DNA from: Paramacrobiotus metropolitanus
Taxonomy: Eukaryota > Tardigrada > Eutardigrada > Parachela > Macrobiotidae
Direction: 5' to 3'
NCBI RefSeq assembly: GCF_019649055.1
Contig: NW_026570232.1
Span: forward strand, 124,001-188,000
DNA: 64,000 bases
The translations under genes were made by a program, and so were the position numbers. How positions within the stretch are numbered: position 1 is the first letter of the stretch; each line of letters begins with the position of its first letter. Below the pieces are notes generated by a model, which was not told the DNA's origin, did not search any database, and saw nothing but the letters and a program-made list of their open reading frames with translations. Below are positions 15,017-55,923 of the stretch, piece by piece.

Positions 15017-18000
15017 ATGTGGAAATCTCAGGTTGGCGTGGGAAACCTTCCGAAGCCTGGTGCTTCCGATGATTGGGACACGGATCCTGATTATGTGGTA
15101 GGAAATTGGGGAAAATGACGCCGTATTGGCCCTGACTACCTGAACTGTTTTACTGGATCATGCATTCATTTGTGGTCGTCTGCTTGGTAGAATAATGTCA
15201 CGGAGAAAGATCAGCGCTGGGGTGCGAAACATATTAGTGGATCTGGGCACCACGAGTCAGTTGAGTAAGTAACAAACTGGCATACAGCCAGCATTTGCTG
15301 CTCTTTTTAACGTGAAATTGAGTCGCGAATTGCTGAATTTAATGGGTATGTGATTTTGGTGGATTGTAGCTTGAACCAGCTGCGGAATGAAGTTCGCAAG
15401 GATGACAGTGCTATCAAAAAGAAAGTTTTAGAAGAGCAGAAACCTGGCTACGGATATGGAGGAAAATACGGCGTGGAAACTGATCGCATGGACAAGGTCC
15501 GTCAGACACACGTTTTAGCGTTTTCAGAACCGATTTCTTAGCATTGTACATTCCTGGCGCCTTTTCCGTTTTTTTTCAGTAAATTTTTTCGCACCAGGCG
15601 TCATAAGCGTCGACTGCGCAGTTATTCACTAAAAGCTATCGTTGCGGATAATTTCATATAATTTTGAATAACTTCTTAGATATTTCTGTGGGTTTCTTAG
15701 CAGTTTTAGAGGTTTGTCCCCCAGAATTATCTTACTCTGCACCGCTTTTCCCTTTTTCAGTAAATTGTTTTTCAGTAATTTTCTAGTTCCAGGCTTCGCA
15801 ACCATACTTAAGCATATTGCGCAGTATATAGATATTTGTGTGTATTTTCAGTAGTTTTATAGGTGTTTGTTTTTTTCCAGAATTACCTTTAAAGTGCTTT
15901 TTTTCAGAGCGCAATGGGGGCCGATTATCACGCTCCCCAGGAAAAGCACGCCTCACAGACCGATTACCAAAAAGGGTTCGGCGGTAAATTTGGCGTGATG
16001 GATGATCGCGTGGATAAATCGGCGGCCGGATGGGATTACAAGGCGGATGTGGTGAAGCACCAGTCGCAGAAAGACTACAAAGGAGGCTTTGGAGGCGAGT
16101 TCGGTGTGCAGACCGATCGGCAGGATAAATCGGCGGTAGGATGGGATTACCGTGCGCAGAACGAAAAGCATGAATCGCAGAAGGACTACAAAGTCGGCTT
16201 TGGTGGACAATTTGGTGTGCAGCAGAATGCCCAGGACCAGAGCGCCGTGGGGTGGGATTATCAAGAAAAAACCGATAAACACTCCTCGCAGAAAGGTAAA
16301 TGGTTTGTGCTGTTGGGATTTTCGTGTTATCCTTAATCCTGCTTTTTTAGACTATTCCGCCGGTTTTGGAGGGAAGCACGGTGTCCAGCAAACGGTGGAT
16401 AAATCGGCCGTAGGTTGGGATTATCAAGCGAAGAAGGAAGCACATGCTTCACAAAAAGGTACGGCCGTAGACCCGCTCTACAATTTACAGTTCGAGTATA
16501 AAATAATGTCCTTGAAATTTAAAAGGTGAGTTTATATGTAAAAGGTTTCCACACTTGCTTTCGTGTTATTTTTATTGTTTACTTTTGTGTTGCTTTGATA
16601 CTTTTTTGTGGTCACATTTTCCTAAAAGGGATTGCACTTTATTTGATTGAAGCTAAGTACACAACTGATTATTTCCTTCAGATTACAAAACGGGCTTTGG
16701 TGGGCAGTTTGGTGTTCAAAAAGATCGGCAGGACGCGGCAGCCGTCGGCTGGGATCATCGCGAAAAAGTCGACGCTCACGAATCACAAAAAGGTGCTCGC
16801 CGGCAAAAGAAAACCAGTCTTCGATCTTACCTTTGAACGGTTGGTAAAACAGTCGGTTTCTGCAAATGACAGATTATAAAAAGGGATTCGGTGGGCAATT
16901 CGGGGTGCAGAGCGACCGACAGGATAGTTCGGCTCATGGTTTCGACTTTAAAAGTCCTACAGAAGCACATGAATCACAAAAAGGTGAAATCTGCGGTTTT
17001 CCCAAGCTGAGTGTCGGGATCGAGCTATCGTGCCCTGTACTTACAGATTACAAGGCCGGATTCGGAGGCCAGTTTGGTGTGCAGAAAGATAGGCAAGACG
17101 AATCGGCGCACGGTTGGGATGAGGCCCCGGAAAAACCTAAACCTGGTGCTAAGAAGGTTGACATTGAAAACGGTAAGGTAGTTCGTAATTGAGGATTTTG
17201 ACATGGATTTCGGTCAACATTGATGACTCGTTTGAAATACAAAAAGCATTTGCTGTGACACTGTTTTACAAAGGTTGCTTGTACTGCATATCTGCTACTT
17301 TTATGTGTAGTGATTTGTTATCAGTTTGGATTAGGTTAAATGTTATGTCTAGGACTAATACAAGTATGCTATTTGTTGCAGGCAGCGCCAAAGCATCCAA
17401 TTTGAAGGCTAGATTTGAATCAATGGCGCTTGATGGAGCAAAGGTAAGCAAAGCAGACCTAAATAACTCTGTATGCGACAATTGTTGTTCTAATGATGAG
17501 TGCATGCCACCAGCACTCCATTTTTTGTCGGTCAAGCTAATAATGATAATTCAGACGATAAGCGTTATAGGAAACCCAAAAGAAACTGGAAGAAGAGCGT
17601 TTGCGCCGTAAGGCTGCTGAGGAGAGAGAACGAGAACAGTCTAAGCGAGCGGAAGAAGAACGCCAGAAAGTTATTGCGGAAGAGCATAAAAAGTTGGAAG
17701 AGGAAGAAGAACGGGAGCGACAACGTACCGGAAAAGATGCCTCGGACGAGGAAGAAGAGGAAAAGGAGCTGAAACCGTCTCAGCAAGCCTTCAGATACGA
17801 TGCGCCTGCATCCGTGCCATCACCGCCCCGGAGGAAGCTATTCGACGACGACGATGAACAATCGGCTCCTGTGCAGCCGGAAACACGGACCGCGGTGGTA
17901 CAACCCAGTGAAATTAAAGTCCCTGAGAAGCAGCGATCATCTAGTGGTGCTCGTCATCACGAAGATCGGGTGCGCTACGGTGCTCAACAGATTTTTAAGT

Positions 18001-51008: not shown

Positions 51009-52289
51009 ATGAATTACGAAAAAATTGATCTTGACTCGGTAGGACTGGTGTCATATGATTTCGCTCCGCGTTGTATTCAGCCGGACTCATTATTACACTG
51101 GCCCGTGTTTGACCATTTCCACACCGTGTTAGAATCGGCCAACACCTTTCTCTCGATCAACCCCGGAGTACACGCGGTCGCCTGCGAAACGCTACACCTT
51201 CGCGTGGAAAAAGACCACATACGAGACCCGGATCGTAGTGATTATTTCCAGACAGGGGAAATTCTCCGCCCGTTCGTTAAAGGTCTTCGCGTCTGGGTGC
51301 AGAAACGGCCAGAAAATCTCCGCAGTCCCATTCCGGATCAGATCAACTACATTAACTTCGTGCCGAACATTGCGAAAACGGAAGCCGCGGATAAAAATCC
51401 GATGGAAATCATTACCGAGATGAATGACTGGATTAAAGAGCACCGCATTCCCGGCCGGATTATTTCCATCGATACACTGCAGATGCGCGGTGTGGAAGGC
51501 GAAGTCAACGTGGATATTACCAGCTGGAAGCAGGACAGTGCCGCGCATGTCAAACAGAGCTTTTTGAACTTTTTCCGAATTTTCTACGTGATTGATGCAT
51601 CGTATCCCGTCGAGGAAATCGGGTTTATGGATTTTCTTCCCGAAACGCTGGAAGGTGTGGGGATTTTCAGCTGGCCAATCGTCGAACGCTTACCGGAAGT
51701 GGTGGATCACGTTAGCCAATGGGCGAAGCGCTTGCCGCCCAACGTCCGCCTCCTCAACTTTCAGACTATTCTGTGTCGTTCTGACTACAAAATGTGTCTG
51801 GATCCATACAAAACATATTACTGGGATGAATATTTCCACGTGTACCATCGACGACTATTGCGTATCGGGTACGCATTGACCACGGAAAAGAGCCTTCCTG
51901 TTGTGCCGGTTGCCAATATGGTCACCACAGTATTGTTCGCTCCCGGCATCGTCCGCGACCCGCACTGGTATAAATGGTCCGGTGCGTATGAAACGCAAAG
52001 CACGGTAAAGGAGCGTATGAATGCGTGGATTAAACTCACGCAGGCTAGTGTTGTCGGGGTGGAAACGCTAGCGTACAAGGCTAGCACAGGAGCGGAGTGC
52101 TCCGAAGGGTTTAATGCAATGCACACCTGGAACGAGAAAGGTCGTCATGGTGCCAAGCAGGAACAGTATCTCATTTGTTTAAGGGTTTATATCAACGGTG
52201 CGCCTGATGAGCCGAAAGATTTTCTCTGGCCAAAAACCTTGCTAGACTGGGAAAAGGAAAACCCGAGTAGTAATTGTAAATTTTGTTGA
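51009..52289 (+). CDS. Intronless gene for an unrecognised four-repeat protein
   Basis: One uninterrupted frame of 426 residues, unlike its neighbours, most of which carry many introns. I do not recognise the family. The protein is about four diverged copies of a 90-100-residue unit, at roughly residues 14-97, 112-195, 204-287 and 305-395. Each unit has a hydrophobic strand with an F-x-P motif (YDFAP, INFVP, MDFLP, LFAPG), an acidic/aromatic helix, then an N- or W-containing segment (SANTFL, MNDWIKE, VSQWAKR, MNAWIKL). A strand ending ETL, DTL or QTI comes next (ACETLHLR, SIDTLQMR, NFQTILCR, GVETLAYK), then a closing aromatic strand (LRVWV, FRIFYV, LLRIGYA, LRVYI). There is no signal peptide or membrane segment, so it is probably cytosolic or nuclear. 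It ends CKFC, which has the CaaX spacing. The G/C-ending codons and intact frame argue for a functional gene. An ATTAAA lies at 52433. Confidence 0.85.
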   Translation: MNYEKIDLDSVGLVSYDFAPRCIQPDSLLHWPVFDHFHTVLESANTFLSINPGVHAVACETLHLRVEKDHIRDPDRSDYFQTGEILRPFVKGLRVWVQKRPENLRSPIPDQINYINFVPNIAKTEAADKNPMEIITEMNDWIKEHRIPGRIISIDTLQMRGVEGEVNVDITSWKQDSAAHVKQSFLNFFRIFYVIDASYPVEEIGFMDFLPETLEGVGIFSWPIVERLPEVVDHVSQWAKRLPPNVRLLNFQTILCRSDYKMCLDPYKTYYWDEYFHVYHRRLLRIGYALTTEKSLPVVPVANMVTTVLFAPGIVRDPHWYKWSGAYETQSTVKERMNAWIKLTQASVVGVETLAYKASTGAECSEGFNAMHTWNEKGRHGAKQEQYLICLRVYINGAPDEPKDFLWPKTLLDWEKENPSSNCKFC

Positions 52290-54421: not shown

Positions 54422-55923
54422 ATGATCGTAATTGCGGTCAATCTTCTCCTCAGCTGCATGTACGTGTTGAGCCAACACGCGCACCACGGAGCGGCAGTGC
54501 TGCAGTCATCGCCGCTGCAGCAAAGTCCCGCCGGAGCGACACCAGTTGCCGGTAAATATAAATTATTGATGATTGTACTTATTGAAGAACTTACGCGATC
54601 GCGGAGCGGCAGTACTGTAATAAGCAAAACTATATTGCTGCTTTTTTATCAAAGAGTTAACTGATCAGTATTAACAAAATTAATTTAAATTAACTTTTTC
54701 AAAATTAATAAAGATACATATAATTCGAAGGCTGTCGAATAACAAATTTAAATGCAGGCGAACTGCGAGGTTCCGCCACGGAAGCGGACGCGGTAAAATC
54801 TGTCCAACTGCGGGAACTGCAAGTTGGCCCATCACGTGGCAGTATTTCCAAAGCGCCGACTTCCAAGCGTTATCACGATGTACTGGAGAAACCGAAATTT
54901 CTCCCGTATACGCAGTCAGAAGGTGGCCGCGAGCGCCCGAAGAAACACCAGCAACAGCAGCAGCAACAGCAGTCTGCCGACAGCAGCGGTTCTAACGGCA
55001 AAGTCAGCTACGAAATCAAAGTATATATTCCGCGACCGGAAGCGGCACCATCCGAGTCCGTTCCAGAACGAATCGCTGCATCCTCGGAAATTTCACCCAG
55101 TCGAGCCGAACCGGAATACATGATCTCGCCGCACTACGCCTACGACGACAGACCACCGCCCATCGCCAAATACGGCCACTATGGAATGCCGGCTGTGAAG
55201 CCGGTTCACGACACAAAACCCTATTATTATGTTCCCGTCTATGAAGATCCCAACGCGCCCGAACCCAAAACACCCGCCAGCAAACTATACCACCCCAACG
55301 ATCGCGAGGTGTACAAACCTCGCCTGGTGGAGGTATCTCACCCGAACAGTCCCGAACACAAGACGTCCGAGGATGCCTCTCGACCGGTGACCTTTGTAGA
55401 GGTCAAACCGGTTAAGACCGCTGAGCCAGCGTATCCGCCCAGCTACAAACCAAAAAAACCATTATACGGAACATCCGAACGTCCCGCGTACGATAGCCGG
55501 GACCGTGAGCACGGTTACGTGCGCCCTAATACCGAAACGTACGTCATCGGGGATTACGTACCGTATGAATTGCAGCAAACAACGGATCCTCCCGTGGCTG
55601 CCGCCGACAAGGAAACCGCGTACTACGAAAAGATCGCCGCCGAGCCGTCGTATAATGAAGTGCAAAGGTCACGGCCACGGGGTCCCGATGGGTATGGATA
55701 CGGGTCACCGGGTTATTATCATTCACCGCCGCCTCCTCCACCGCCCGTCTATCAAGCGGCGCCGTCCTACTACTACGTGTATCCTTACCATGGAAATTAT
55801 GGGCAACATGGCAGCGGCTACTACAGTCAAAACAGCCACGGTGCAGGGGGACAGTATCGTGGACAGCATCCCAGGCCGCTATACTCCGGCTACGGATACG
55901 CGGCCTTTGCACCTTACAGATGA
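54422..55923 (+). CDS. Secreted Tyr/Pro-rich low-complexity protein (cuticle- or matrix-like)
   Basis: Two exons, 54422-54551 and 54758-55923, give 431 residues and join in phase. Residues 1 to about 18 form a typical signal peptide (MIVIAVNLLLSCMYVLSQ). The mature protein is disordered in composition: a seven-residue glutamine run, then long Pro/Tyr/Lys/Glu stretches (PYYYVPVYEDP, SYKPKKPLYG), a PPPPPPPVYQ block, and a Gly/Tyr/Ser-rich tail (GYGYGSPGYY, YSGYGYAAFAPYR). There is no cysteine beyond the signal peptide region, no folded domain and no R&R chitin-binding motif. Such composition fits structural cuticle, eggshell or adhesive proteins that may be cross-linked through tyrosine; that is inference. 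The acceptor lies 6 nt before the ATG in an ACCACC context. An AATAAA lies at 56098. Confidence 0.85.

What the first reader, a model, noticed from the sequence alone, without database searches (positions are those of the whole stretch)
51009..52289. Intronless orphan protein made of four degenerate repeats
Most other genes here are rich in introns, but this 426-residue gene has none. The protein is a tandem array of four units, each with an F-x-P strand, a helix, an N/W segment, an ETL/DTL/QTI strand and a closing aromatic strand. The family is unknown to me. The absence of introns suggests retroposition or a lineage-specific expansion of single-exon genes. The regular strand/helix alternation suggests four copies of one small alpha/beta fold.
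Basis: partly seen in the sequence, partly recalled or inferred. Interest (0 to 1): 0.7.

Follow-up and report, generated by a model that had tools for sequence, protein, structure and literature searches.

The report
Membrane-anchored four-repeat tardigrade protein family
This gene belongs to a previously unannotated family of about 25 water-bear (tardigrade) proteins, each built from four copies of one small fold and nearly all ending in a signal for a fatty membrane anchor; it matters as a sizeable, testable piece of animal "dark" proteome, but its job is still unknown.

Summary
In detail: window 51009-52289 (+) is an uninterrupted 426-codon gene for four divergent tandem units. All six unit pairs match as paralogue profiles (hhalign probability 95.7-99.0%). 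AlphaFold2 with 46 paralogue rows gives pLDDT 88, pTM 0.90 and four successive strand-helix-strand-strand units. The host is a eutardigrade (CAHS gene at 68% identity; 169.8 Mb, like Paramacrobiotus metropolitanus). The gene is not an orphan in its genome: about 25 related loci exist, many in intron-bearing tandem clusters under purifying selection. It sits in a strongly supported five-gene clade of three single-exon and two intron-bearing genes and shows no retrocopy hallmarks. No Pfam, NCBIfam, PHROG, PDB-sequence or confident fold match was found. Eukaryotic proteomes could not be searched, so restriction to tardigrades is untested. Best reading: a prenyl-anchored cytosolic-face scaffold or adaptor of an undescribed family.

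The parts
51009..52289 (+). Single-exon protein-coding gene, 426 aa, four-unit repeat protein with CaaX-type C-terminus
   Evidence: ORF; full-length paralogues; structure model pLDDT 88.1, pTM 0.90
51009..51041 (+). N-terminal extension, residues 1-11; lacks the PPxY motifs found at this place in other subfamilies
   Evidence: alignment and motif scan
51042..51314 (+). Repeat unit U1 (residues 12-102)
   Evidence: hhalign to U2/U3/U4: prob 97.7/99.0/95.7; DSSP of model
51336..51593 (+). Repeat unit U2 (residues 110-195)
51612..51878 (+). Repeat unit U3 (residues 202-290)
51915..52199 (+). Repeat unit U4 (residues 303-397), with the family-conserved GFxxMHTWN-type loop
52200..52274 (+). C-terminal tail, residues 398-422, poorly conserved linker to the anchor
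   Evidence: alignment; pLDDT falls to 52 at the end
52275..52286 (+). CaaX-type box CKFC (residues 423-426), probable prenylation site
   Evidence: Cys at -4 in 17 of 24 modelled family members, the others with CVIV, CVII, CVIS, CTIL, CAIA, CTIS, CPIV, CVVM, CTIA, CVIA, CNIL, CIVA, CSVM; FTase rules allow K at a1, F at a2, C at X (PMC10320760)

Best explanation
The gene encodes one member of a eutardigrade family of about 25 peripheral membrane proteins. Four tandem strand-helix-strand-strand units pack into one compact body (predicted). A flexible tail ends in a CaaX box, whose cysteine is prenylated by farnesyl- or geranylgeranyltransferase, so that the body is held on the cytosolic face of a membrane (inferred from the conserved motif and from its replacement by a transmembrane helix in three sister genes). 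There it most likely acts as a docking or scaffold surface for partner proteins or small ligands (inference). In other subfamilies PPxY motifs in the N-terminal tail could add WW-domain partners such as NEDD4-type ligases. Shown: coding gene, four homologous units, family size, purifying selection, conserved C-terminal motif, prenyltransferase genes in the genome. Inferred: lipidation, membrane location, scaffold role. The missing introns mark the gene's subclade, not a recent retrocopy.
For: Four units. Family and paralogues. The CaaX cysteine sits at exactly -4 in 17 of 24 modelled members although the linker before it varies in length and sequence. C23d, C23e and C23f carry hydrophobic C-terminal helices (Kyte-Doolittle 19-residue means 3.03, 2.95, 2.75; no other modelled member exceeds 1.71) and form one clade. 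Prenyltransferase alpha (two loci) and beta (three loci) genes are present. dN/dS is 0.10-0.37 in close pairs. Yeast FTase disfavours mainly D/E/K/R at a2 and K/P/R at X (PMC10320760). N-terminal PPxY in C40b-f, C126b, C211b and C3b.
Against: The window gene's own box, CKFC, is less canonical than its paralogues' boxes. Two modelled members (C40d, C23b) end with neither a CaaX box nor a TM helix, C4 is incomplete and C39 has an unclear end. No expression or localisation data were available. Without coordinates, no binding cleft could be examined. The scaffold role has no direct support.
Confidence: 0.55

Rival explanations
1. The window gene is a retrocopy: a spliced transcript of an intron-bearing paralogue was reinserted, which explains the missing introns.
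For: Its nearest paralogues by path, C40a and C319, carry introns, and most family members have 1-4 introns. A clade of only the single-exon genes is not rejected (AU p = 0.12), so one old intron loss by reverse transcription remains possible.
Against: Nearest paralogue 41% identical; no poly-A tract or target-site duplication; two more single-exon genes in the same clade; intron positions differ between subfamilies, so independent gains are also plausible.
Confidence: 0.2
2. It is a soluble small-molecule-binding or enzymatic protein built from SHS2-type modules, as in the GyrI/BmrR/SOUL group, and the CaaX box only fine-tunes its location.
For: The unit order strand-helix-strand-strand is that of the SHS2 module (own knowledge). 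BmrR (3d6y) appears in the second-look list with Z 3.4 over 63 residues and 21% identity at U4. GyrI-like proteins are described as small-molecule binders, some of them hydrolases (abstract of PMC5684135).
Against: Z 3.4 is background level and ties with unrelated rows. No Pfam model matches any unit, even at E up to 10 with consensus sequences. No Foldseek hit in the PDB has E below 0.2.
Confidence: 0.25
3. The CaaX box of this particular gene is decayed and the protein is no longer anchored, while most paralogues are.
For: CKFC departs from the aliphatic pattern of most other members, and the gene is a fairly long branch in its clade.
Against: Cys at -4 is retained and each of its other residues is tolerated by yeast FTase (PMC10320760).
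Confidence: 0.25
4. The domain came from, or is shared with, giant viruses.
For: One Harvfovirus protein (A0A3G5A3U9, 142 aa) has Foldseek probability 0.90 over 98 columns at 19% identity.
Against: E = 0.12 and TM 0.41 on the target; no relative in IMG/VR by peptide-pattern scans, which find close relatives only.
Confidence: 0.07

Closest known systems
CaaX-box (prenylated) proteins such as Ras/Rho GTPases, lamin B, Ydj1, PEX19
   Same: Cysteine four residues from the C-terminus with permitted a1, a2 and X residues; the swap of CaaX for a TM anchor in sister genes suggests the same anchoring role
   Different: Body is an unrelated four-unit alpha/beta repeat; no nucleotide-binding, coiled-coil or J-domain match in Pfam
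SHS2-module proteins (GyrI-like, SOUL, BmrR effector domain)
   Same: Unit order strand-helix-strand-strand, tandem arrangement
   Different: Four units instead of two, no detectable sequence relationship, structural match at background level (Z 3.4)
Internally repeated alpha/beta proteins among the weak fold hits (cyanuric acid hydrolase, chorismatase, APCbeta domain of a Plasmodium perforin-like protein)
   Same: Repeated alpha/beta units packed in one body (own knowledge of these proteins)
   Different: Foldseek probability 0.06 or less, or VIA Z 2.5; no sequence similarity above background

Membership tests
CaaX-box prenylated proteins | Cysteine at position -4 from the C-terminus | tested here: met
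   CKFC in the window gene; 17 of 24 modelled family members
CaaX-box prenylated proteins | a2 not D/E/K/R and X not K/P/R (yeast FTase rules) | tested here: met
   a2 = F, X = C; rules from PMC10320760
CaaX-box prenylated proteins | Host encodes the prenyltransferases | tested here: met
   PF01239 at 2 loci, PF00432 at 3 loci in the own genome
CaaX-box prenylated proteins | Lipid actually attached and needed for membrane binding | not testable with these tools
   needs mass spectrometry or localisation
SHS2 / GyrI-like superfamily | Strand-helix-strand-strand unit | tested here: met
   DSSP of the model, four times
SHS2 / GyrI-like superfamily | Sequence match to a curated GyrI/SOUL-type model | tested here: not met
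   hmmscan against Pfam-A, single members and unit consensus sequences, E up to 10
SHS2 / GyrI-like superfamily | Same overall fold (structure comparison) | tested here: inconclusive
   BmrR Z 3.4, tied with unrelated rows; whole model of 426 residues only
Retrocopied gene | Flanking duplications or poly-A tract, and a closely similar intron-bearing parent | tested here: not met
   No flanking repeat pair or poly-A; nearest paralogue 41% identical
PPxY proteins (WW-domain ligands) | PPxY motif in a disordered tail | tested here: not met
   Absent in the window gene; present at the N-terminus of C40b-f, C126b, C211b and C3b

The most novel reading that the evidence does not exclude
A new protein domain, confined to tardigrades, whose four tandem copies form a pseudo-symmetric body not represented in the PDB, expanded to about 25 genes and held on membranes by interchangeable lipid or transmembrane anchors.
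Probability: 0.3. Interest if true: 0.65.

Novelty: new variant of a known kind. Interest (0 to 1): 0.5.

Why it matters
A sizeable, selected, unannotated gene family in a stress-tolerant animal gives a concrete target in the dark proteome. The swap of a CaaX box for a transmembrane helix in three sister genes is a natural experiment on why the protein must be on a membrane. If membranes are its site of action, a link to tardigrade cell-membrane biology, including desiccation, becomes testable; no such link is shown here.

Tried and rejected
Single-sequence AlphaFold gave pLDDT 34 and was discarded. A first fragment alignment (A3) placed exons on the wrong repeat and was replaced by a set checked against the full-length alignment. 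Scans for relatives in viral contigs, prokaryote genomes, phages and plasmids found none; the pattern scans find close relatives only. Weak Pfam hits (Tox-PL-2, Flavi_M, BppU-like, Ketoacyl-synt_C, DUF3905) are below cut-off, cover fragments and differ between members: rejected. Foldseek's PDB list has no hit with E <= 0.001 and VIA-align's best Z is 3.5; this does not show that the fold is new. The rRNA search failed twice for technical reasons. Papers linking tardigrades to CaaX or PPxY proteins: none found; the four papers holding both 'tardigrade' and 'prenylation' were, by title, about lamins, RABL2, germ cells and sesquiterpenoids.

Full report
Observation. The ORF at 51009-52289 is real, uninterrupted and coding. 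Paralogues in the same genome match along its full length: three other loci are also a single exon (C3:2222k, C23:997k and the very divergent C39:988k), and many more match exon by exon. The assembly is 169.8 Mb, the size reported for Paramacrobiotus metropolitanus (PMC11191345). The species assignment is an inference.

Repeats. I built approximate gene models for 20 multi-exon members by choosing GT-AG junctions that maximise the profile score, aligned all 24 members and cut four units. Unit-versus-unit profile comparison gives probabilities of 95.7-99.0% for all six pairs. Identity between aligned unit profiles is only 12-21%, so the repeat is old. The recurrent signature is DFxP in strand 1, an N/W-containing helix, an (E/Q/D)T motif in strand 2 and LR(V/I) in the closing strand.

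Structure. With 46 paralogue rows (exon pieces checked for correct placement) AlphaFold2 gives pLDDT 88.1 and pTM 0.90, against 33.8 and 0.29 without an alignment. The secondary structure shows the same order four times with spacings of 90-105 residues. High pTM suggests one rigid body rather than beads on a string. Foldseek against the PDB has no hit with E <= 0.001 (best 0.21). VIA-align's best Z is 3.5; its list includes BmrR at U4. A Harvfovirus protein is a lead with probability 0.90 but E 0.12.

Family. Counting clusters gives about 25 loci: tandem arrays on C40 (five genes), C23 (five) and C126, and scattered singles. C52 looks degraded and C126:305k is a lone first exon. Close pairs have dN/dS of 0.10-0.37. 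The tree has three main groups: the window gene with C3a, C23a, C40a and C319 (100/100 when the long branches are left out); C211a/b, C3b and C515; and the C40/C23/C126 clusters. Each intron-bearing group has its own intron positions and phases. Inside the window clade the intron-bearing pair C40a/C319 is nested (94/88), but a clade of the three single-exon genes is not rejected (p 0.12). So either introns were gained in C40a/C319 or they were lost in the others; a recent retrocopy is unlikely.

Anchors. 17 of 24 modelled members end in Cys-a-a-X exactly at the stop codon; C23d, C23e and C23f end in a hydrophobic helix instead. The remaining four are C40d and C23b (neither anchor), C39 (unclear end) and C4 (incomplete). 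The linker before the box is variable, so conservation of the terminal four residues is unlikely to be incidental. CKFC is within yeast FTase tolerance (PMC10320760), and the genome encodes prenyltransferase alpha and beta subunits. Several other members carry one or two PPxY motifs near the N-terminus.

Mechanism. The best-supported reading is a cytosolic-face, lipid-anchored four-unit body used as a docking or ligand-binding surface. Anchoring is a strong inference; the surface's use is a weak one.

Novelty. No match in Pfam, NCBIfam, PHROGs or PDB sequences. Lipid-anchored proteins are a known kind; this family appears undescribed in the sources held. Whether other animals have it is open.

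Noticed in passing
L041:1457-1918 (-), L049:3925-4374 (+): Group-II paralogues C211b and C515 carry a long histidine-rich insertion (runs of 3-5 His) in unit 4 before the last strand, a possible metal-binding loop.
   Followed up: no
L034:1657-2352 (+): Paralogue C40d has an insertion of roughly 75 residues between units 3 and 4 rich in repeated LKSQESAF-like segments, apparently an expansion of the FESQES segment, and has lost the CaaX ending.
   Followed up: partly
L036:4578-5102 (+), L037:4301-4816 (+), and the gene spanning the L036/L037 junction: Three sister genes of the C23 cluster replace the CaaX box by a C-terminal transmembrane helix.
   Followed up: yes
G000:C94:542054-554887 and G000:C319:16772-18941: Nearly identical gene copies on two contigs, but exon 1 and exon 2 are about 11.4 kb apart in C94 and 0.5 kb apart in C319, and the last exons carry small differences: haplotypes, an insertion, or a recent duplication.
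   Followed up: no
L048:866-2431 (+): C52 paralogue is fragmentary with in-frame disruptions, probably a pseudogene.
   Followed up: partly
G000:C126:305668-305997 (+): A lone first exon of the family (with a PPDY motif); no downstream family exon was matched nearby.
   Followed up: partly
window 15893-16336 (+): Tandem repeats of a cortactin-like kind ([30 protein letters not shown]).
   Followed up: no
window 54724-55923 (+): A 399-codon open frame rich in Pro and Tyr with poly-Gln and poly-Pro runs, a low-complexity protein downstream of the finding.
   Followed up: no
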